From positions 276,501-340,500 of the forward strand of contig CAKKNE010000002.1 in assembly GCA_918797485.1 (NCBI GenBank): a stretch of 64,000 nt of DNA. Reading direction: 5' to 3'. Position 1 is the first letter of the stretch. Each line of letters begins with the position of its first letter. The notes under the pieces are model-generated. The model was not told the origin of the DNA, did not search any database, and saw nothing but the letters and a program-made list of their open reading frames with translations. The DNA is from Pelagomonas calceolata. Lineage: Eukaryota > Sar > Pelagophyceae > Pelagomonadales > Pelagomonadaceae. Of the stretch, positions 1-64,000 are shown one piece after another. The translations under genes and the position numbers were made by a program.

Positions 1-327
1 CGGCTCGATCCCGACGGTACGATCCTGTGCGCAAATCAACCAGTGAGTCGGGTGCACTCTTACTCTGCTGCAGCGCGGCCGCGAAGACTGAATCGAGGGG
101 CGCAAGACCCACACCGCCACGCCGTCGAGCTGGCGTCGCGTCGAGTCGCGCCGCGACAATTTGATGTACGCACAGGTACGATCTCGGTCCTCGACGACAC
201 GGGCCTCGTCACCGCGCACGTCGTCGTGCCGGCCGTCTGCGACGCGTTCCTCGACATCTACCTCGGCGCCGACGGCATATCGCCGACGACCCTCGAGGCC
301 GTCAAGGCCGGGCTCGAGAAGTTTTGA
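1..327 (+). CDS. 3' end of an unidentified gene (partial)
   Basis: Only the last part of this gene lies in the window. Bases 1-16 and 176-327 form one open frame once the intron 17-175 is removed. The join is seamless, because one copy of the 8-bp duplication GTACGATC stays in the mRNA. The visible tail is about 55 residues and ends in VKAGLEKF before TGA at 325-327. The sequence is moderately hydrophobic with no motif I recognise, so no function is assigned. The stop lies 38 bp from the stop of the convergent SUZ12-like gene, so the 3' UTRs must be very short or overlap. The intron length is a multiple of three and it has no in-frame stop here, so a naive gene caller would translate straight through it. 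Confidence 0.6.
   Translation, partial: RLDPDGTILCANQPVSRVHSYSAAARPRRLNRGAQDPHRHAVELASRRVAPRQFDVRTGTISVLDDTGLVTAHVVVPAVCDAFLDIYLGADGISPTTLEAVKAGLEKF
17..175 (+). mobile_element. Introner (intron-forming DNA transposon copy), 159-bp intron
   Basis: The element body 25-175 starts CTGTGCGCAAATCAA and ends in its near inverse, TTGATGTACGCACAG. It is flanked by perfect 8-bp direct repeats GTACGATC at 17-24 and 176-183. The upstream duplication supplies the 5' GT and the element end supplies the 3' CAG, so splicing restores the uninterrupted target. It shares AAATCAACCAGTGAGTCGG and a GC-rich core with the intron at 10554-10728. Non-autonomous introners with inverted repeats and 8-bp duplications are known from Aureococcus. 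The perfect duplication suggests a fairly young insertion. Confidence 0.85.
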
Positions 328-9768: not shown

Positions 9769-11399
9769 TCACCACCGCATCGACGCCGCGCGATCATCCG
9801 CGAGGGCGGGCCGTCCCACTTCGAGGCCCAGCTGCTGAGTGGCCAGCTTCGGGCGCGGCGGCGGTTGGCGCGCGCCGGCCGATGCCGGCCTTGGGACGCG
9901 CTCGGCCCCGCGAGAGTGTGAAGAAGAGGACGCGGAACGGCCTTCGCCGTCCGAGAACAGGCTCAAATAATCAAAAGACCACGAGGCGCTCTCGTCGACG
10001 GTGCGGAACCGGTCCGCGGGCGTCGGCGCCGCCGGTTTCGCGGCCCTGTCGCGGCGGAAGGCGATCGCCGCGTCGGTCTTGGCGGTGCCGCGGTAGTGCG
10101 GCCGCGGCGGCCGCTTCGGGGGCGGCGCGCCCTCGTTGTCGGCGAGCGCGGCTGCCGCAGCGCGTCGCCGCGCCGACCCCGGCCGCCGGGTGGCGTGATC
10201 CGGCCGCCGCGAGGCGTGCTCCGGCGCGGCCGGGCCCGCGCGCGGCTTGCGCGGCGAGAGCTGGACGGCGGCCTTGACGACCGACACGGCGGACCGGAGG
10301 AGCGACTTCTTCGGAGACGCCGCCGCAGGTCTCGGCTCGCGCGGCGGCGGCACGAGCGCCCTCGGCGGCCCGAGGGGGCAGTGCTCGTAGAGCTTGCGCA
10401 CGGGCAGCTGCGCGGCGCGCGCGAGGAGGCAGTCCGAGAAGCGGAGGCACTCGAAGAGCGGCAGGTACGCGTCGCTCTTCTCCTTGGCGGCCTGCGCGGC
10501 CTGCGCAGCGCGCGCGTTCGTCCAGCCAGCGTCGGCGTCGGCCGCATCGTAGCCTGCGTGGAAATCAACCAGTGAGTCGGTTACGACGCTGCCGTGCTGG
10601 CTCCGTCGAGCGGTGAGGAACCGGCACCGCCACGCTATCGAGCAGGCGTCGCGTCGATGACGTGGAGGTCGACGCCGGCGGTTCAGGACGAACGCGTCGC
10701 GAATTTTGATTTCCACACAGGTCGTAACGGAACGGCGGCGGCGGCCACGCGCGCGAAAAGCCGCCGCTCCGCGCGCGCCGGAGCTCGTCCTCGGCGTGGC
10801 AGACGACGTCCCAGTCGTCCGGGCCGAGCCGCTCGAGCGCGACGTCCTCGGGCCGGCCCGAGCGGCGCCAGGCGTCCTGCTGCGCGCCCGCGCCGCCGGC
10901 CGGCCGCGCCGGGCCGCCGGCGCGCGACCGGTCGAGGCGGTCGCGGCGCGCGGCGCGCGCCTCCTTGCGCGCGGCCTTGGTCGAGAAGGGCCGGAAGCCC
11001 GTCGTGTGGAAGACGTCGGCCACGAGGCGGCCCTTGATGCGCCGGTCGAGCACCGAGTTGCCCATGAGCGACGGCGAGATGTTGACCTCGATGAGCCAGG
11101 GCCGCAGGTCCGCGTCGAGCAGCACGTCGAAGCCGAAGAGCTCGTAGCACGGCCGCCGCGGCGCCGGCGGCGCGCCGGCCGGCCGCGCGGCCCGGCACGC
11201 CTGGACGTTGTGCGGCGTCAGCTCGGCCTCGGCGGCGATGAGCGTCTTGACGACGAGGTCGTGGCAGCGCGCGCGCACCGCCGCCGCGTCGTGGCCGTGC
11301 GCGTCGAGCCAGCGCCACAGCGCCTGCAGCGGCCACTTGAAGGCGTCCTCGGGGTCGGCGCCGCCGGCCGTCGGGTCCGCGGGGCCCGCGGCGGCCTCC

Positions 11400-15754: not shown

Positions 15755-16610
15755 TATTTTTCCTCTTGTACGCTCTGCGGCGCGCGCGCGTTTTTAGTGC
15801 TGCCGGCGCCCACCAAGCGGCGGCTGTGGCAGCAGCAGGTCTCCAAGTCTTCCGGGCACTGCACGAGAGCAGTGATTACGCGGGCACGGCTCAGCGGCCC
15901 CGCGCGCTGCGCAAACTGCCTTGACGAGCGGGACGAAACCCGCACTAAAAGGTTCAGCTTTCAGGGCCACAACAAGTGATTAAGCATGAACCCACGCGTG
16001 TCCCGTCTCGCCGCCCGTCTCGCGCTTTGCGTCGGCGCACTAGACTGAGCCTCTGAGACGGCGTCTGCGAGGCAAAAAATCAGCCTATTAGCGCGCGCTA
16101 CAGCGCTGCTCCGAAGCTTTGGGCTTCTCCGGGAGCCTATCCAGCGAGGACTGCTCGCCGCTGCGCTGCGCCAGCTCTCAGCGCGCCGCCGCGGCTCTCC
16201 TGAGCCAGCACAGCTGTGTTTCTGGCTGGGCTCCATAGGACGACACGGCGCCGCCGTCACACGGCCCACGATCACTTAGTATGTCCGTCCGTGATTCACG
16301 CCGCTGGACTTTGCTTCCTCTTGGGTGACAATGTTTACCTGATAACCGGGTGATCACGTGGCCGTCGGAAAAGTGGTCGGGCTGAGTGGCGGTGGTCTGC
16401 TCCGAAACGTTCTCATGGACGCGGCCTGCGGGGTACACAAGGTCGTGAGCTGCGTACCGCTGTGCGGCGCACCTCAAATGGCCTCGACGACGTCAGACGC
16501 CGGCCGCACCGTCCTTCTCAAGGTCGCGGCGCTTCGAGGGCTGCTTCTTAGTTGTTCTGGTGCGTGACCTGCGCCGTCGCGACCACGGGCGACGACGGGT
16601 CCTCCAGTTC
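15755..16610. other. Intergenic before the tandem array
   Basis: About 850 bp with no supportable gene. Small open frames exist but lack homology and codon bias. The segment 16470-16610 is a diverged partial copy of the downstream repeat unit (CTTCGAGGG, GACCACGGGCGACGACGG and CGTGATCTAATGCTGATCTC are recognisable). Confidence 0.5.
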
Positions 16611-19083
16611 GTGATCTAATGCTGATCTCGCGCCTCGACGCGGGCCGCGCCGTCCTGGACCAGGTCAAGGCGCTTCGAGGGCGGCGTGTTATGTGATCGT
16701 GACCTGTACTCGGCGTCGCCGTGAGCAAGGGCGACGTCGGATCTACCAAGTCGTGATCTCTCGCTGATCTTGTGCCTCGACGCGGGCCGCGCCGTTCTGG
16801 ACCAGGTCAAGGCGCTTCGAGGGCGGCGTGTTACATGATCGTGACCTGTACTCGGCGTCGCCGTGAGCAAGGGCGACGTCGGATCTACCAAGTCGTGATC
16901 TCGCTGATCTTGTGCTCGACGGGCGCGCCGTCCTGGACCAGGTCAAGGCGCTTCGAGGGCGGCGTGTTATGTGATCGTGACCTGTACTCGGCGTCGCCGT
17001 GAGCAAGGGCGACGTCGGATCTACCAAGTCGTGATCTCTCGCTGATCTTGTGCCTCGACGCTGGCGCGCCGTTCTGGACCAGGTCAAGGCGCTTCGAGGG
17101 CGGCGTGTTACATGATCGTGACCTGTACTCGGCGTCGCCGTGAGCAAGGGCGACGTCGGATCTACCAAGTCGTGATCTCTCGCTGATCTTGTGCCTCGAC
17201 GCGGGCCGCGCCGTCCTGGACCAGGTCAAGGCGCTTCGAGGGCGGCGTGTTACATGATCGTGACCTGTACTCGGCGTCGCCGTGAGCAAGGGCGACGTCG
17301 GATCTACCAAGTCGTGATCTCTCGCTGATCTTGTGCCTCGACGCGGGCCGCGCCGTCCTGGACCAGGTCAAGGCGCTTCGAGGGCGGCGTGTTATGTGAT
17401 CGTGACCTGTACGGCGTCGCCGTGAGCAAGGGCGACGTCGGATCTACCAAGTCGTGATCTCGCTGATCTTGTGCCTCGACGCTGGCCGCGCCGTCCTGGA
17501 CCAGGTCAAGGCGCTTCGAGGGCGGCGTGTTACATGATCGTGACCTGTACTCGGCGTCGCCGTGAGCAAGGGCGACGCCGGATCTACCAAGTCGTGATCT
17601 CGCTGATCTTGTGCCTCGCGCGGGCCGCGCCGTTCTGGACCAGGTCAAGGCGCTTCGAGGGCGGCGTGTTACATGATCGTGACCTGTACTCGGCGTCGCC
17701 GTGAGCAAGGGCGTCGGATCTACCAAGTCGTGATCTCTCGCTGATCTTGTGCCTCGACGCGGGCCGCGCCGTCCTGGACCAGGTCAAGGCGCTTCGAGGG
17801 CGGCGTGTTATGTGATCGTGACCTGTACTCGGCGTCGCCGTGAGCAAGGGCGACGTCGGATCTACCAAGTCGTGATCTCGCTGATCTTGTGCCTCGACGC
17901 GGGCCGCGCCGTTCTGGACCAGGTCAAGGCGCTTCGAGGGCGGCGTGTTACATGATCGTGACCTGTACTCGGCGTCGCCGTGAGCAAGGGCGACGTCGGA
18001 TCTACCAAGTGGATCTCTCGCTGATCTTGTGCCTCGACGCGGGCCGCGCCGTCCTGGACCAGGTCAAGGCGCTTCGAGGGCGGCGTGTTATGTGATCGTG
18101 ACCTGTACTCGGCGTCGCGGTGAGCAAGGGCGACGTCGGATCTACCAAGTCGTGATCTCTCGCTGATCTTGTGCCTCGACGCGGGCCGCGCCGTCCTGGA
18201 CCAGGTCAAGGCGCTTCGAGGGCGGCGTGTTATGTGATCGTGACCTGTACTCGGCGTCGCCGTGAGCAAGGGCGACGTCGGATCTACCAAGTCGTGATCT
18301 CTCGCTGATCTTGTGCCTCGACGCGGGCCGCGCCGTTCTGGACCAGGTCAAGGCGCTTCGAGGGCGGCGTGTTACATGATCGTGACCTGTACTCGGCGTC
18401 GCCGTGAGCAAGGGCGACGTCGGATCTACCAAGTCGTGATCTCTCGCTGATCTTGTGCCTCGACGCGGGCCGCGCCGTCCTGGACCAGGTCAAGGCGCTT
18501 CGAGGGCGGCGTGTTATGTGATCGTGACCTGTACTCGGCGTCGCCGTGAGCAAGGGCGACGTCGGATCTACCAAGTCGTGATCTCTCGCTGATCTTGTGC
18601 CTCGACGCTGGCCGCGCCGTTCTGGACCAGGTCAAGGCGCTTCGAGGGCGGCGTGTTACATGATCGTGACCTGTACTCGGCGTCGCCGTGAGCAAGGGCG
18701 ACGTCGGATCTACCAAGTCGTGATCTCGCTGATCTTGTGCCTCGACGCGGGCCGCGCCGTCCTGGACCAGGTCAAGGCGCTTCGAGGGCGGCGTGTTACA
18801 TGATCGTGACCTGTACTCGGCGTCGCCGTGAGCAAGGGCGACGTCGGATCTACCAAGTCGTGATCTCTCGCTGATCTTGTGCCTCGACGCGGGCCGCGCC
18901 GTCCTGGACCAGGTCAAGGCGCTTCGAGGGCGGCGTGTTATGTGATCGTGACCTGTACTCGGCGTCGCCGTGAGCAAGGGCGACGTCGGATCTACCAAGT
19001 CGTGATCTCTCGCTGATCTTGTGCCTCGACGCGGGCCGCGCCGTTCTGGACCAGGTCAAGGCGCTTCGAGGGCGGCGTGTTCA
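16611..19083. repeat. Tandem array, 18 copies of a ~142-bp unit
   Basis: Eighteen head-to-tail copies, each containing GACCAGGTCAAGGCGCTTCG, CTGTACTCGGCGTCGC, GACGTCGGATCTACCAAGT and CGCTGATCTTGTGCCTCGAC. Full units are 142 bp; several are shortened to about 135-141 bp by small deletions. Copies are almost identical apart from a few sites. Two variants dominate: CCGTCCTGG with GTTATGTG, and CCGTTCTGG with GTTACATG. They largely alternate along the array. Edge copies diverge at both ends. Frames through it stay open only because the unit lacks stops; 142 is not a multiple of three, so I do not call genes. Confidence 0.95.
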
Positions 19084-28307: not shown

Positions 28308-30500
28308 ATGCAGCAGCTTGCTCTCCTTGTTGCTGCCTCGGCGGCGGCGGCCTTCGCGCCGACGCCAAACCAACGCATAGACACCCGCCTACACTTCAAT
28401 TTCGGCAACTTCGGCGGCAAGAAGGTCGATGAGAAGGAGGCCGTGAAGCTCGCCGAGACGGTCGACGTCGTCGGCGCGCTCCCGACGGAGATGGCGGGCC
28501 TCACGCCGGAGCTCGACGGCTTGCGCAAGGCGAATGCCTTGTTTAATCAGGGGCTTATTAGTATGGACGAGATCGACGAGTACGCAGACACGCTCGCCGC
28601 GGCGAAGCGGAAGGAGGTCGCGGAGAAGGAGCGCGACGCGCGCGAGGCGGCCGAGCGCGAGGCCCGGGCGCGCGAGCGGACGCGCGCGGCCGCCCGCGCG
28701 GCGACGGGCGCCGTCGGCGGCCTCGTGGGCTTCGTGGGCCGCGGCGCGGGAATCAAATCGTCGCGGCGCGGCTCGGTTCCGCCAGCACGGGCGCGAGAAC
28801 GCGTGCCCCCGACTCGCTGATGGCGCGTCCGGCGTGGCGGTGTGGTCTCCCACCGCTCGGCTCCGCCAGCACGGGAGAACGCGTACCTAACTCACCGATT
28901 GATGTGCGCACAGGTGGGCCGGGGCCTCGCGGGCGCGGCGGGCGCGGCGGCGGGCGCGGCGGTCGAGGGCGCCAAGGGCGCCGCGGTCGCGGCCGCGACG
29001 GGCGCCGTCGAGGGCGTCAAGGCCGGGACCATCGCCGTCGGCAAGGGCGTCGTGGACGTGACCATCGTGCGGCCGGCCAAGGCCGTGGGCGACGCCGCGC
29101 TCAACGTCGCGACGGCGCCGGTGCGCGCCGCCGAGGCCGCCGCGCAGAAGGCGGCGGCGGCGCCCGGCGAGGCGGCGGCGCGCCTCCGGGCCGAGGCCGA
29201 CGCCGCGCGCGCGGCCGCGGACGCGGCGGCCGCGAAGGCGAGCGCCGACGCGCAGGAGGCGGCGCGGCTCCGGCGCGAGGAGCTCGAGCGCGAGGCGACG
29301 GCGCGCGTCGACGACGTCAAGGCCCGCGTCGCGGCGGTCCAGGACGCCGTCGCGACCGCGCCGGACCGCGTCCGCGACGCGACGACGACGGCCGGCCGCG
29401 CCGCGGCGACGCTGCTCCGCGGCGCGGCCGCGAACGTCGCGGCCGTCGGCGCCGAGGACGCCGCGGCCGAGGCGCGCGCGGCGACCGTCGACATGCCGGC
29501 GCCGCCGCCGACGGCCGGCGAGTGGCGCGCGGCCTGCGACGCGGCCGTCGTGTCGCACTACGACTTTGGCGTGCGCGCGACGGAGGCCGCGCGGCGCGCG
29601 CAGTTCACGGCGCAGGAGCCCGAGGACATCTTTGAGGGCCTCGCCGAGGACGACATGGGCGCGCGCTTCTCGGCCGTCGTCGTCCAGGCCTCGAAGAAGT
29701 TCGCGGCCGAGTTCCCGCCGCTCGCGCAGCGGACGGTGGCCACGACGCTGCGCGTTCCGCGGCGTCCCCTTGTTTGATACAAAACGCCGTCGCGCGTCGT
29801 TCCGAGGCGGGCCGGGACCCACGGCCCCGCGTCTATTTTAGCGCGACGGAGAGCGACCCCCGGGCCGCGCGCGCCGCGGTCGACCGAGACCGCCGGCCCG
29901 CGCGCCCCGGCACATGACGTAAACCGTCGCAGGTCGAACGCGACGGCGTCGTTCGAGGCGGCGGCGGCGCGCGAGGCCGTCGAGAAGACGGCCGCGGTCG
30001 CCGCGCGCGAGGCGATCCGCAAGAAGCGCGAGGACGACCTCAAGCGCCAGGACTTCAAGCTCGAGGAGACCGCGGCGACGGTCGAGCGCGAGGCGCTGCT
30101 CGCCGCGCGCAAGGTGCTCGCGATCCCCGACGACGAGTACTTCGGCGACGCGACCGCGCTCGCGGACCCCGCCACGGCCCAGGCCGTCGCGGACACGCTC
30201 AAGGCGCGCACGGACGCGCTGCGGGCGGAGCGCGACCGGCGGCTGCCAGCGCCGTCCGTGCGCGCGCCGAAGCGGCCGCCCGTCGCGCCGCTCCGGCCCC
30301 TCGACGACAAGGCGGCGACCGCGCGCACGGACGCGGCCGCCGCCGACGCGCTCGCGCGCGACCGCCTCGCGCGCGCCGCCGAGGCCCTCGTCGTCGACGC
30401 GGCCGTCGGCGACGAGGCGGAGCGCGAGCGCATCGTCGCCGCGCTCCAGGAGAAGCTCCTCTCGACGACGTCGGAGAAGTCCGCGAAACAGCGGGAGTGA
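28308..30500 (+). CDS. Plastid-targeted Ala-rich coiled-coil protein of unknown function
   Basis: The N-terminus MQQLALLVAASAAAAFAPTP is a textbook heterokont bipartite plastid leader: a signal peptide with an AFAP cleavage motif and a Phe at +1. Exon 1 (28308-28733) joins exon 2 at 28914 across a perfect introner and reads GFVG-RGLAGAAG. The protein is dominated by Ala/Glu/Arg coiled coil, with a Gly/Ala/Val-rich stretch (about residues 140-200) that may associate with membranes. A compact motif (GEWRAACDAAVVSHYDFGVR) lies near 29518-29577. A last exon (about 29933-30500; FGDATALADPATAQAVADTL) continues the coil and ends EKSAKQRE. A TGA at 29775-29777 in the same frame implies a second intron, roughly 29754-29932, whose 5' edge I could not fix. 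No family recognised. Confidence 0.7.
28734..28913 (+). mobile_element. Introner, 180-bp intron with perfect 8-bp duplication
   Basis: Flanked by GTGGGCCG at 28734-28741 and 28914-28921. The body opens CGGCGCGGGAATCAAATC and closes ATTGATGTGCGCACAG, a decayed inverted pair. Inside is a direct repeat of about 45 bp: GCTCGGTTCCGCCAGCACGG near 28771 and GCTCGGCTCCGCCAGCACGG near 28855, each followed by AGAACGCGT. Removal is phase 0, and retention would introduce a stop at 28818-28820. Confidence 0.85.
29754..29932 (+). other. Probable second intron of the plastid coiled-coil gene
   Basis: Coding quality collapses between about 29754 and 29932, and an in-frame TGA lies at 29775. The 3' site GTAAACCGTCGCAG at 29932 opens straight into strong coiled-coil coding. 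The 5' site is unclear: GTTCCGCGGC at 29754 is out of phase with 29933, while a GC at 29759 is in phase. Confidence 0.45.
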
Positions 30501-30698: not shown

Positions 30699-30765
30699 GT
30701 CTGTGATGCACCTGCGCGCGACGTCGTCTCGGTGACTGCGTTTACACACTGGTTGATTTCCACAC
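30699..30765. mobile_element. Intergenic introner-family relic
   Basis: The right edge GGTTGATTTCCACAC is the family terminus seen in the genic introns, here followed by TG instead of AG. The interior GACGTCGTCTCGGTGACTG resembles GACGTCGTCTCCGTGATTG inside the SET-gene introner (63498-63516). The left edge is uncertain (CTGTGATGCACC). It lies outside any gene, so it would not be spliced. Confidence 0.55.
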
Positions 30766-31261
30766 TGACCCGCGCTCGCGCATGGTGGCTTGCGGGGGGT
30801 GCTTGCGAAGAGAGAGAGGAGGGAGGCGAAGGGATCCGAGGGTGAGTCGGACTTGACCTGCGGGCATACGCGTTTATTCCTCATCGACAGGCGAGCTCTA
30901 GATAGGCGAGGGCGTGCCGTTGTGAACGTGGCGTGGTGTGGCGTGGGTATGGGCCTCAGGCGCGCGCGCGCGGCCGTGTGTTTTGATTGGGGTGGCGGTT
31001 AATAGGCTTTGCTCCTTTGGTTGGACGAGGTACCGCCGGCCATGCGGCTCACGACCAATAGGGGTCAGTCTGAAGGCGAGGAGAGCGCGAGGCGACCGCG
31101 CGCGTTTCTCAGGCGCCGCAATTTGACCGTGTTTGTGAATTGCGCGGCAGGCCCAGACGGCGCAGGCGCGCCTCAAGCAAAGTACCACTCCCCACCCCTT
31201 ACACGTCTCTAGATTGCATCCAGGGGGAAAAAAGGGGGATCGTTTGCCGGTTTTCGTTTTG

Positions 31262-36435: not shown

Positions 36436-39007
36436 ATGACCTCCTCGCACAACTACGGCGTGAACACGCTGAGCCTCAAGGGCGGCAACCACGACGCGAC
36501 GCGGAACTACCTGGAGGTGCTGATCTACCTCACCGTGCTCGGCATGCTCGTGCTCAGCCTCCAGCTTTTATTGAGGATGGCGCGGACGCAGATGCAGCCG
36601 CGGCCCAAGTACGTCAAGCCCGACCCGCTCTTCAAGGACTTCGCGAAGGGCCAGAACTGGAGCTGGGACTGGGTCATGGTCTTCGCCGTGCGCAACCCCG
36701 ACGACTACGTGTCGGACTACCAGCGGCGGTTCACGCTCCGGCGCGTCGTCGAGCGCCTCGAGTCGGGCGGCCTCGAGACGAAGCTCTACAAGTCGTACAC
36801 GTATGACAAGATCTTTTGTAAGATACGGTGCAGCGCGGACCGGCTCAAGGACCAAGCCGCAGAAGTGTGCTACCCCCTGCTCCTGGACGAGACGCAGGTC
36901 GTCGCGCGCATCGAGAAGGGACGGAAGAAGCCGGACGGCGAGTGGAAGTGGTACCCGCGGCGCGCGGGCTGGCTCCTGACGGGCGAGAACGAGGCCGGCG
37001 AGTACGTCGAGCGCGAGCAGGACAACGCCATCGTCGACACGGAGGGCCAGTCGGACTACCCCTATGAACGGTTTATCTACGGCAAGTTCGACAAAAGGCC
37101 GGACCTGCAGCACCCGTCGGTCTACGTGACGTACCCCGCCTCCAACAGCATCTTCCGGTCCGTCGACCGCCTCAAGCTCATCGAGGGCATCATGGAGGCG
37201 GACCCGAAGAAGCGCGGCTGCAACCTGCAGCTCAAGGAGCTGCTGGCGCGGGGCGCGTGCCTCGCGATCTACCCGCTGCACGACGACGACGAGTTGCAGA
37301 CGATCCAGGACCGCTGGCTGACGCCCTGCGACCCGCCCTGGGCGCAGCCCATCGTCATGGTCAAGGACTACTTCGGCGAGAAGGTGGGCATGTACTTCCT
37401 GTTTTTGGGGACGTACTCGACGTGGCTCTTCTACGCGGCGGGCATCGGCATCGCCTCCTTCGGGTTGGAGCTGCTGGGGGGCCAGTACCTGACCTGGGCG
37501 ACGGCGGCCTGCGGCATCTGCATGAGCCTGTGGACGACGCTCTTCCTCGAGTGCTGGAAGGGCGAGGAGGCGCGCGCGAAGCTCGAGTGGGGCATGACGG
37601 GCTTCGAGGAGACGGAGGAGGACCGCACCGAGTTCGAGGGCCGCGAGATCCACAGTCCGGTGACGGGCCTGCCCGACGCGTACTTCCCGCCGCGCGACAA
37701 GGCCCGGCGCATCGTGGGCAGCTACCTCCAGATCGTGCTCTGCATCTTCTACGTGAGCTGCGTCAACGCGGGCATCTTCTACGTCCACGCCTACGTGAGC
37801 CGCTACCCTTTGCGCAACTACGTCGACTTCCACCACCTCGCGGACGGGCCCTTCGGCGTGCCGACGGTCGTCACGAACCTCGCGCTGGCGCTGTTGATCC
37901 AGGCGACGAACGCGCTCTTCATGCCCTTCGCGACGCGCATGACCAAGGTCGAGAACCACCGGACCGAGACGGACTTCGAGGATCAATTGATAGCCAAGGT
38001 CTTCCTCTTCCAGTTCGTCAACTCGAACGGCGCGCTCTTCTACGTGGCCATGGCGCAGGGGCCCCTGACGCGCGGCATCGGCGACAAGCAGCCCTGGAAG
38101 ACGCGGCGCTTCGACTGCGCGCCGTACTGCCTCGAGCACGTCAGTTATTTGCTGGGCACGATCTTCATCGTGCGCGTCGTGCTGGGCAACTGGAACGAGG
38201 TCGTGGCGCCGTTCCTGGCGCGGCTGCGCAAGGACGCCGCGCGGCGGCGCGGCCACGACGAGGACGACGCCGAGTACGAGGACCCGGCGTCGACCAGCAT
38301 CCGCAAGCGCCAGGTGTCGCCGGCCGAGGAGCAGTTCGAGAAGGACGACTACGGCAGCCTCGACATCTTTGATGATTACGGCGAGCTCGTCGTGCAGTTC
38401 GGCTACGCGACGCTCTTCGTGTCGGCCTTCCCGCTCGCGCCGGTCTTCGCGTGCGTGAACAACTTCATCGAGATCCGGGTCGACGGCTGGAAGATGTGCC
38501 AGAACACGAAGCGGCCCTGGCCCAAGGGCGCCGAGGACATTGGTACGTGGGAGTCGGTGCTCACGGTCGTCGCGATCCTGGGGACGATCACGAACAGCAT
38601 CATGATCACGCAGACGAGCCCGGCCTTTACCAACGTGACGTCGTCGTACCGGCTCGTGGCCTTCGTCGTGCTCGAGTGGATTTTGATAGGGGCAAAGATC
38701 GTGCTCATCGGTGCACGAATCAAATTGTCGCGGCTCGTCTCACGACCTCCACACACAGGTACTGATGAGCGTCATCGACGACGTCCCGGAGGACGTCGAG
38801 CTCCAGGAGCAGCGCCAGGAATTCCTCGTGACGAAGATCATCGTCGACGAGGCCGACGAGGAAATAGATCTCGAGGACGACGAGTTCATAGAGATCGACG
38901 AGCCCAAGGTCTACCAGTCGGACCCCTGCCTCCGCGAGGACGCCGGCGGCGGCGACGAGGACGACGGGCCAGGCGGTGAGAAGAAAGAGCCTGACGCGGA
39001 GGAGTAA
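36436..39007 (+). CDS. Anoctamin/TMEM16-family membrane protein
   Basis: An 837-residue Ca2+-activated channel or lipid scramblase type protein (exons 36436-38700 and 38759-39007). A first membrane helix (YLEVLIYLTVLGMLVLSLQL) is followed by a cytosolic domain. The anoctamin core begins at DYFGEKVGMYFLFLGTYSTW, with further helices such as IVLCIFYVSCVNAGIFYV and VTNLALALLIQATNALFMPF. The conserved region FQFVNSNGALFYVAM and the later QFGYATLFVSAFPLAPVFA plus NNFIEIRVDGWKM match the TMEM16 core, including the acidic residues of the Ca2+ site. Splicing gives ILIGAKIVLMSVIDDVPEDV, as in family members. The C-terminus is acidic. It is probably plasma or internal membrane; channel versus scramblase cannot be told from sequence. 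Confidence 0.92.
38701..38758 (+). mobile_element. 58-bp introner in the anoctamin gene
   Basis: Starts GTGCTCAT, then CGGTGCACGAATCAAATTG; ends ACCTCCACACACAG followed by GTACTGAT. Duplications match at 6 of 8 positions. Splicing is phase 0 and restores the conserved DVPEDV junction. Confidence 0.8.
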
Positions 39008-62844: not shown

Positions 62845-64000
62845 CTACGCGTAGGGCGGCGGCGCGACGACGTCGAGGGCCGCGGCCTCGGCGCGGTAGG
62901 CCGCCGCAACACTCTCCGCGAGGCGGAGCGCGGCGTCGCGGAACGAACGCGCGGCCTCGGCAGCGGCGCCGACGGTTCCGGGCGAGTCGCCCGCCGCGGC
63001 GCGGCGCAGGTCCGCCGCGTCGGCGTCGGCGATGGCCGCGAGTCGCCGCCAGGCGCGCGCGAGCGCCGGCGGGGCCGCGGCCGCGGCGACGGCGGCCTCG
63101 ACCGCCGCGCCGCCGTCGACGGCCGCGGCCGCCCGCGCCGCCGCAGCCGGCTCGAGCTCGAGCGTGACGGCGACGACCGTCGAGGCATTGCGGCCGCGCG
63201 CCCACGTCGTCTCCGGCGGCGGCGCCGGCGCAGCGCGGATGCGCGCCGCGTCGACGGCGGCCGGGAGCACGGGCTGCCAGCGGTACGTCCCCCGGGGCCA
63301 CGCGCGCGGGCCGAGCGCGGCGTCGAGGAGCGCCGCGCGCGGCGCGTCGGCGGCCGCGAGCCCCACGGGCCGCGCGACGACGGCGTCGTCGTCGAAGGGC
63401 GGCGGCAGCACGAAGCCGTGCGCGACGAAGTAGTCGAAGTTCGTCCAGCCGTAGTTCCTGTGTGGAAATCAAATTTCAGGCGCCCCACGCCATCGACGTG
63501 ACGTCGTCTCCGTGATTGAGTCTGCTCGATGGCGTGATTTCCACACAGCATGTGGCTCGACGACCTCGGCGTCGGCCGCGACCGGGGTCGGCGTCCGCAT
63601 GGCGGCCGCGCCGCCGTCAAACGCCGCCCTCGACCGCGGCGCTCCGGGCGCCCAGCGGCAGTTCGTCATGTCCACCACGGGCACGAACGCCCAGGCCGGC
63701 GCGCCGCCGGGCCCGAGGCCCCGCACGAAGATGCAGCGCGTCATCCAGCACCGGTAGGCCCACCGCCACCGGCTCCGCGGCACGCCGACGTCGTAGCACG
63801 CGCGCGCCGCTTCCACGAACCGGGCCTCGTCGCGCCGCGCGTCCCGCAGCGCGTCGAGCGCGTAGGTGCCCGCGAGGCACGCGTCGCCCGACGCGTCGCG
63901 GAGCGGGTGCGCCGCGAAGCGCTTCGGCAGCGCCCGCACGTACGGAGCATGGGGCGAGGCGTCGCCGGCGGCCCGCTCCAACGCTAGCCGCGCACAGACC
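62845..64000 (-). CDS. SET-domain methyltransferase, LSMT/SETD3-like (5' end outside window)
   Basis: The gene runs off the window edge. Exons are 64000-63557 and 63457-62845. The visible protein starts ARLALERAAGDASPHAPYVR plus ALPKRF, typical of the N-SET region of Rubisco-LSMT/SETD3 proteins. AWAFVPVVDMTNCRWAPG corresponds to the usual LVPLADMxNHxx, with Cys in place of the SAM-contacting His. After splicing, EVVENYGWTNFDYFVAHGFV restores the conserved ENYG core of the SET domain. The C-terminal 170 residues are helical and Ala-rich, like the Rubisco-LSMT substrate-binding domain. Probably a protein-lysine or histidine methyltransferase; the His to Cys change makes activity less certain. 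Stop TAG at 62845-62847. Confidence 0.85.
63458..63556 (-). mobile_element. Introner with perfect 14-bp inverted repeats, 99-bp GC-AG intron
   Basis: The body 63458-63548 begins CTGTGTGGAAATCA and ends in its exact inverse TGATTTCCACACAG. On the coding strand the intron opens with GCCACATG, eight bases before the inverted repeat, and ends at CAG before GAACTACG. The eight-base flanks now agree at only 3 positions. Splicing in phase 2 regenerates the SET motif ENYG, which supports a GC 5' site. Confidence 0.85.

What the first reader, a model, noticed from the sequence alone, without database searches (positions are those of the whole stretch)
17..175. One introner family seen in both orientations relative to its host genes
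The introns at 17-175 and 10554-10728 share AAATCAACCAGTGAGTCGG and a GC-rich core in the same plus-strand orientation, yet the first host gene is on the plus strand and the second on the minus strand. The same element is therefore spliced in sense and in antisense. This works because both inverted-repeat ends read CTG...CAG, so either orientation supplies a 3' CAG.
Basis: partly seen in the sequence, partly recalled or inferred. Interest (0 to 1): 0.75.

Follow-up and report, generated by a model that had tools for sequence, protein, structure and literature searches.

The report
Jumping introns spliced in both orientations
In this small alga a short jumping element has spread through genes as introns, and its near-mirror-image ends seem to let the cell cut it out whichever way round it landed; it is a clear new example of a known kind of element.

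Summary
Introns 17-175 (host gene on +) and 10554-10728 (host gene on -) are copies of one element lying the same way on the plus strand, so each is read the opposite way in its transcript. The exact 19-mer occurs 79 times in the 32.4-Mb genome. The looser left end occurs 886 times, with GT/GC at the sense donor place in 556 and at the antisense place in 570. Anatomy: 8-bp duplication, inverted ends CTGTG...CACAG, variable core. Host strand was called from flanking codon usage alone. Of 69 called insertions (18 sense, 51 antisense), 66 start GT/GC on the host strand (24 on the other strand) and 69 end in AG; flank frames join in 73 of 82 (re-paired flanks: mean 17). Intron A's gene has two more copies the other way round; removing the three gives a 232-codon ORF matching 230-residue database proteins. 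Copies whose second end gives CACTG instead of CACAG start the intron at that end in 70 of 76. No RNA reads were available. The genome fits Pelagomonas calceolata, where introner-length introns are already reported. New member of a known kind.

The parts
17..175 (+). Intron A: intronic 8-bp copy plus 151-bp element, 19-mer end first (sense)
   Evidence: removal restores a 232-codon ORF together with two upstream introns
17..24 (+). Duplication copy GTACGATC giving the 5' splice site of A
25..39 (+). Left inverted end of A
33..51 (+). 19-mer AAATCAACCAGTGAGTCGG in A
161..175 (+). Right inverted end of A: TTGAT...CACAG, 3' splice module
176..183 (+). Exonic duplication copy GTACGATC
10554..10728 (-). 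Intron B: intronic 8-bp copy plus 167-bp element, 19-mer end last (antisense)
   Evidence: flank frames agree, host minus
10721..10728 (-). Intronic duplication copy GTTACGAC giving the 5' splice site of B
10707..10720 (-). Right inverted end of B, at the 5' side of the intron
10562..10580 (+). 19-mer in B, complement lies in the intron's 3' part
10554..10567 (+). Left inverted end of B; its complement is the 3' splice module ending CACGCAG
10546..10553 (-). Exonic duplication copy GCTACGAT
28734..28913 (+). Intron C: diverged copy, GTGGGCCG duplicated exactly, host plus, element reversed relative to A (element orientation read by eye)
38701..38758 (+). Intron D: 58-nt diverged copy, 6-of-8 duplication, host plus (element orientation read by eye)

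Best explanation
A family of short non-autonomous cut-and-paste DNA transposons (introners) that become spliceosomal introns on insertion. Each insertion duplicates 8 bp. The upstream duplication copy on the host strand supplies the 5' splice site, where only GT or GC is visibly constrained. The element end lying downstream supplies the 3' end: a branch-point-like TTGAT whose A is 11 nt before the end, and a terminal CACAG. Because the two ends are inverted repeats, either end can do this, so either orientation can be removed exactly and the original frame restored. Shown here: the copies, ends and duplications, frame restoration, a donor signature that follows the host strand, and both orientations. 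Inferred: that the spliceosome removes them, that TTGAT is the branch point, and that a transposase acting in trans moves them.
For: 79 exact 19-mers, 31 with a perfect 8-bp duplication against a mean of 0.7 in the swapped control. Flank frames agree in phase after removal in 73 of 82 copies, re-paired mean 17.2, maximum 28. Host-strand GT/GC 66 of 69, other strand 24 of 69; AG 69 of 69. Pfam domains crossing the junction: sense L026 and L067 (2 of 8 proteins given), antisense L048, L006, L020 and L017 (4 of 10 given). One gene with three copies in two orientations gives a 232-codon ORF that matches P0039-P0041 across the three junctions. L074: one gene with a copy each way. Ends giving CACTG start the intron in 70 of 76, symmetric ends in 211 of 388. 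Right ends lacking CAG: 0 of 9 sense, 21 of 38 antisense.
Against: No RNA reads. Three of 69 called copies have no GT/GC donor on the called strand: L001 (weakly scored, CG), L008 (GA; its other strand reads GT) and L051 (TC). Nine of 82 flank pairs do not agree. The TTGAT-like motif is also present at the unused end (18 of 18 sense, 39 of 51 antisense), so its presence does not prove use. Database proteins crossing copy A may come from alleles without it, and none was found crossing copy B. Copy A's RNA does not fold better than shuffles (z -0.23), copy B's does (z -4.24).
Confidence: 0.93

Rival explanations
1. The element's transposase prefers GT/GC at its target; the donor signature reflects target choice and not splicing in both directions.
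For: 98 of the first 100 listed left ends carry GT/GC on at least one strand, a high figure if some copies lie outside genes.
Against: The signature follows the host coding strand, called without it: 66 of 69 on the host strand, 24 of 69 on the other, in both element orientations.
Confidence: 0.1
2. One orientation is an ordinary intron and the other is a retained or harmful insertion.
For: Database proteins retain copy A (P0045) or sequence of the upstream copy (P0038, P0047), and those found for copy B read into or start inside it.
Against: Of 47 called 19-mer copies, 32 would shift the frame if retained and 26 bring an in-frame stop. Donor and AG are kept in both classes. Conserved domains cross junctions in both classes.
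Confidence: 0.04
3. Copies spread by reverse splicing of excised introns through RNA, not as DNA transposons.
For: Called copies lie within coding sequence.
Against: Reverse splicing should keep one orientation relative to transcripts; here both occur, with 8-bp duplications and inverted ends.
Confidence: 0.02
4. Database proteins that cross copy A come from introner-free alleles; splicing of A is then not shown by them.
For: The source is given only as 'ena'; P0045 still carries A.
Against: P0039 stands for 281 member sequences and lacks the three introns at once. This does not decide the matter.
Confidence: 0.3

Closest known systems
Introner elements of Aureococcus (Huff et al. 2016 is not held, recalled only; PMC7789003 and PMC9860276 seen in passages and sections)
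   Same: A pelagophyte alga; inverted ends and direct repeats (PMC7789003); 8-bp duplication in Aureococcus sp. (PMC9860276 Fig. 2F).
   Different: In Fig. 2F the introner carries both splice sites and adds 12 bp to the transcript; here the donor lies in the duplication and removal leaves the exon unchanged. Orientation behaviour there was not seen by me.
Introner-length introns of Pelagomonas calceolata (PMC9481584, passages)
   Same: Probably this genome; the paper reports an intron length peak near 210 bp, likened to Aureococcus introners.
   Different: The passages seen give no ends, duplications or orientation; its Supplementary Note 3 could not be read here.
Symbiodinium microadriaticum introners (PMC9860276 Fig. 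2B)
   Same: Inverted ends; [quoted passage not shown]
   Different: 4-bp duplication there, 8-bp here.
Amoebophrya introners (PMC7789003, passages)
   Same: Inverted and direct repeats at intron ends, MITE-like spread.
   Different: Largely non-canonical splice sites and 3-5-nt direct repeats there; GT/GC-AG and 8-bp duplications here.

Membership tests
Introner (intron-generating transposable element) | Many similar introns at unrelated sites, similarity reaching the splice boundaries | tested here: met
   79 exact 19-mers and 886 looser left ends; ends defined against the duplications
Introner (intron-generating transposable element) | Spliced from mRNA | tested here: inconclusive
   Frames, domains and database proteins support it; no RNA reads
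TIR DNA transposon / MITE | Terminal inverted repeats and fixed-length target duplications | tested here: met
   Inverted ends and 8-bp duplications; 31 of 79 perfect, swapped control mean 0.7
TIR DNA transposon / MITE | Both orientations relative to host genes | tested here: met
   18 sense, 51 antisense of 69 called; genome-wide signatures 556 and 570 of 886
hAT superfamily | 8-bp duplication and YARNG ends (recalled) | tested here: inconclusive
   8 bp met; the CAGTG right end of 76 copies fits, the CTGTG ends do not
hAT superfamily | Autonomous hAT element with the same ends in this genome | tested here: inconclusive
   One place matches PF05699; no close end match in the 3.2 kb held; the ORF runs off that stretch. 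Other transposase families were not searched

The most novel reading that the evidence does not exclude
The inverted repeat is a complete, duplicated 3' splice module (branch-point-like TTGAT plus CACAG), kept because it makes insertions survivable in both orientations. The subfamily whose second end gives CACTG lost that insurance and survives almost only one way round: a natural experiment on why introners keep symmetric ends. The 5' splice site needs little more than G-Y, so recognition of these introns would rest mostly on the 3' module.
Probability: 0.5. Interest if true: 0.6.

Novelty: new member of a known kind. Interest (0 to 1): 0.45.

Why it matters
Orientation independence argues for DNA transposition over reverse splicing as the source of these introns. 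The symmetric and the one-way copies let one ask, within one genome, which splice signals a new intron must bring with it and which it borrows from its target. Genes with copies in both orientations, such as the one at the start of the window, are ready test cases.

Tried and rejected
Considered and rejected: chance similarity (0 in shuffles); retained coding insertions; target preference as the whole cause of the donor signature; reverse splicing (both orientations, duplications).

Tested without support: improvement of the intronic duplication copy towards GTRAGT (7 changes towards, 6 away, 15 neither, at positions 1-6 of 21 diverged pairs out of 47 copies). A general RNA hairpin: copy A folds no better than shuffles, copy B does; only these two were folded. 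A matching autonomous transposon: one hAT-like ORF, no close end match in the stretch held. The two left ends with a donor signature on neither strand (L080, L081) had no clear partner end.

Bias found and handled: the 19-mer lies in the 3' part of antisense introns, so it over-samples that class; a second set without the exact 19-mer was taken from DNA already held and looser patterns were counted genome-wide. Those genome-wide counts are of donor signatures, not of called host strands, and the listings showed only the first places of the larger sets.

Rows dropped: of 79 copies, 57 were kept after removing unclear ends and duplicates (L035 and L059 by name; thresholds set by me), 47 strand-called. 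Of 29 bystander rows 4 were dropped with loci L015, L035 and L050 as repeats, 25 kept, 22 called. Of 10 sense translations printed 8 went to Pfam (L001 and L025 left out): 2 hits over the curated cut-off, both crossing the junction, and 1 below it. Of 24 antisense translations printed (38 called) 10 were given: 4 with a domain crossing, 1 with domains on both sides, 3 with a domain on one side, 2 with none. The codon model was trained on 22 window ORFs picked by base composition, not homology; its 104 of 104 is on its own training windows.

Full report
Setting. The window is C2:276501-340500 of a genome of 32,445,274 bases in 8 contigs. Size and contig number fit the Pelagomonas calceolata RCC100 assembly: 32.4 Mb in six nuclear contigs plus plastid and mitochondrion (passages of PMC9481584). 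The best-scoring named relative of the copy-B host protein is from Aureococcus, also a pelagophyte. The organism's name is an inference.

The observation. The 19-mer AAATCAACCAGTGAGTCGG is at 33-51 and 10562-10580, both on +, with none in 100 shuffles. Intron A is GTACGATC|CTGTGCGC...GTACGCACAG|GTACGATC. Intron B, on the minus strand, is GTTACGAC|CTGTGTGGAAATC...GATTTCCACGCAG|GCTACGAT. The elements share the 19-mer, the inverted ends and a GC-rich core. Flanking codon usage puts A's host on plus and B's on minus. So the element lies one way round in A's transcript and the other way in B's.

The family. The genome holds 79 exact 19-mers, 35 forward and 44 reverse, and none of the reversed control pattern. 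All 79 places were read. The anatomy is: 8-bp duplication, CTG[T/C]G...AAATCAACC left end, variable core, TTTGATTT..GCAC[A/T/C]G right end, duplication. The duplication is perfect in 31 of 79 and at least 6 of 8 in 57 of 79; with left flanks swapped among copies the means are 0.7 and 9.1. Of the 79, 57 have confident ends and are non-redundant by my thresholds.

Host strand and splicing. A codon model trained on window ORFs was applied to each flank separately. Flank frames agree in strand and phase after removing element + 8 nt in 48 of 57; of the 52 on one strand, 48 are in phase and 4 are off by one. A second set of 25 copies without the exact 19-mer, lying inside loci already held, agrees in 25 of 25. 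Together 73 of 82 agree, against a mean of 17.2 and maximum of 28 in 1000 re-pairings of flanks. Of 69 called copies 18 are sense and 51 antisense; donors are GT 43, GC 23, other 3; 69 of 69 end in AG. On the unused strand GT/GC occurs in 24 of 69. The signature therefore belongs to the host strand, as splicing requires. The three exceptions are L001, L008 and L051. No consensus is visible beyond position +2 in the 47 called 19-mer copies.

Homology. Sense: Roadblock/LC7 (L026) and TauD (L067) domains run through the junction, 2 of 8 proteins given; L025, not strand-called by the model, lies in what I recognise by eye as triosephosphate isomerase, with a second copy 48 nt downstream of its duplication. 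Antisense: THF_DHG_CYH (L048), transaldolase (L006), kinesin (L020) and RdRP (L017) run through it, 4 of 10 given.

One gene, both orientations. Just upstream of the window, in the gene that holds intron A, are two more copies with perfect duplications (C2:275820-276003 and 276052-276243), reversed relative to A. Removing the three introns gives a 232-codon ORF. Database proteins P0039, P0040 and P0041 (230 aa; 281, 2 and 2 member sequences; precomputed PF16036) match it across the three junctions. P0038 crosses two and begins in translated sequence that fits the 3' end of the first copy; P0045 reads into copy A. Whether the contiguous proteins come from RNA or from introner-free alleles cannot be told here. 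For copy B no database protein crosses the junction; P0001 reads into the intron and P0002-P0006 start inside it. L074 holds a second gene with one copy each way.

Genome-wide balance. Left ends CTGTGNNNAAATCAACC: 886. With GT/GC at the sense donor place 556, at the antisense place 570. Among the first 100 listed, 29 have the sense signature only, 40 the antisense only, 29 both and 2 neither. These are signature counts, not called hosts, but they indicate classes of similar size; the exact 19-mer over-samples the antisense class, in whose 3' part it lies. The second set gives 9 sense and 13 antisense of 22 called.

A one-way subfamily. 76 right ends read CAGTGNNNAAATCAAATT; the complement ends CACTG and offers no terminal AG. 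70 of 76 have GT/GC at the start of the adjoining 8 nt, so the intron would start there; of 388 symmetric right ends, 211 do (Fisher test). In the 19-mer set, right ends without CAG occur in 21 of 38 antisense and 0 of 9 sense copies; conversely two of nine sense copies lack CAG at the unused left end (L053, L074). Over both sets the unused end still offers AG in 16 of 18 sense and 26 of 51 antisense copies.

Mechanism. The donor is borrowed from the target. The acceptor and a branch-point-like YTNAY, its A 11 nt before the intron end, come from whichever inverted repeat lies downstream: 15 of 18 sense and 49 of 51 antisense. The motif is also present at the unused end (18 of 18 and 39 of 51), as expected of an inverted repeat, so its presence does not prove use; for the 19-mer copies the antisense match is fixed by the probe. 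Antisense 19-mer introns also carry CTCAC with A 19 nt before the end (37 of 38), likewise fixed by the probe. Symmetric ends make both orientations usable; an asymmetric end restricts use. Splicing, branch point and transposase are inferred.

Known and new. Introners with inverted ends, with donors recruited from the duplication, and with GC donors are known, and the pipeline of Gozashti et al. allows opposite-orientation insertions (PMC9860276: abstract, section 4 part 1 of 2, sections 8, 23 and 26, passages). Searches for introner with Pelagomonas, with orientation, antisense and inverted repeats, with Aureococcus, with either orientation (none), with opposite orientation (two papers; PMC3510045 not read), and introner from 2022 on (listing) showed me no description of this family's orientation behaviour. 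Passages of PMC12730881, PMC12768974 and PMC10666404 hold the word introner but not orientation. Huff et al. 2016 is not held and supplements could not be read, so no priority is claimed.

Noticed in passing
window 16472-19081: A tandem array of units of about 140 bp (16-19 copies in register, many 95-100% alike) in a stretch of lower G+C.
   Followed up: no
window 63458-63548: A 91-bp copy with both CTGTGTGGAAATCA ends but no matching 8-bp duplication; flank frames on minus are off by one for the interval tested.
   Followed up: partly
window 30745-30767: A single introner-like end (GGTTGATTTCCACACTG) with no partner end seen nearby, perhaps a relic.
   Followed up: no
L079 1396-3204 (contig C4 around 4499982): The only PF05699 (hAT dimerisation) match reported for this genome, in a long open frame; its ends were not found to match the introner in the 3.2 kb held. 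The CAGTG right end of the one-way copies fits the hAT end rule as I recall it.
   Followed up: partly
L025: A gene recognisable by eye as triosephosphate isomerase has two introner copies about 48 nt apart.
   Followed up: no
L034 and L035 (C3:4198350 and C3:4289319): Two loci about 91 kb apart carry the same introner and flanks, a segmental duplication.
   Followed up: no
69 called copies: GC donors are frequent: 23 of 69, against 43 GT.
   Followed up: partly
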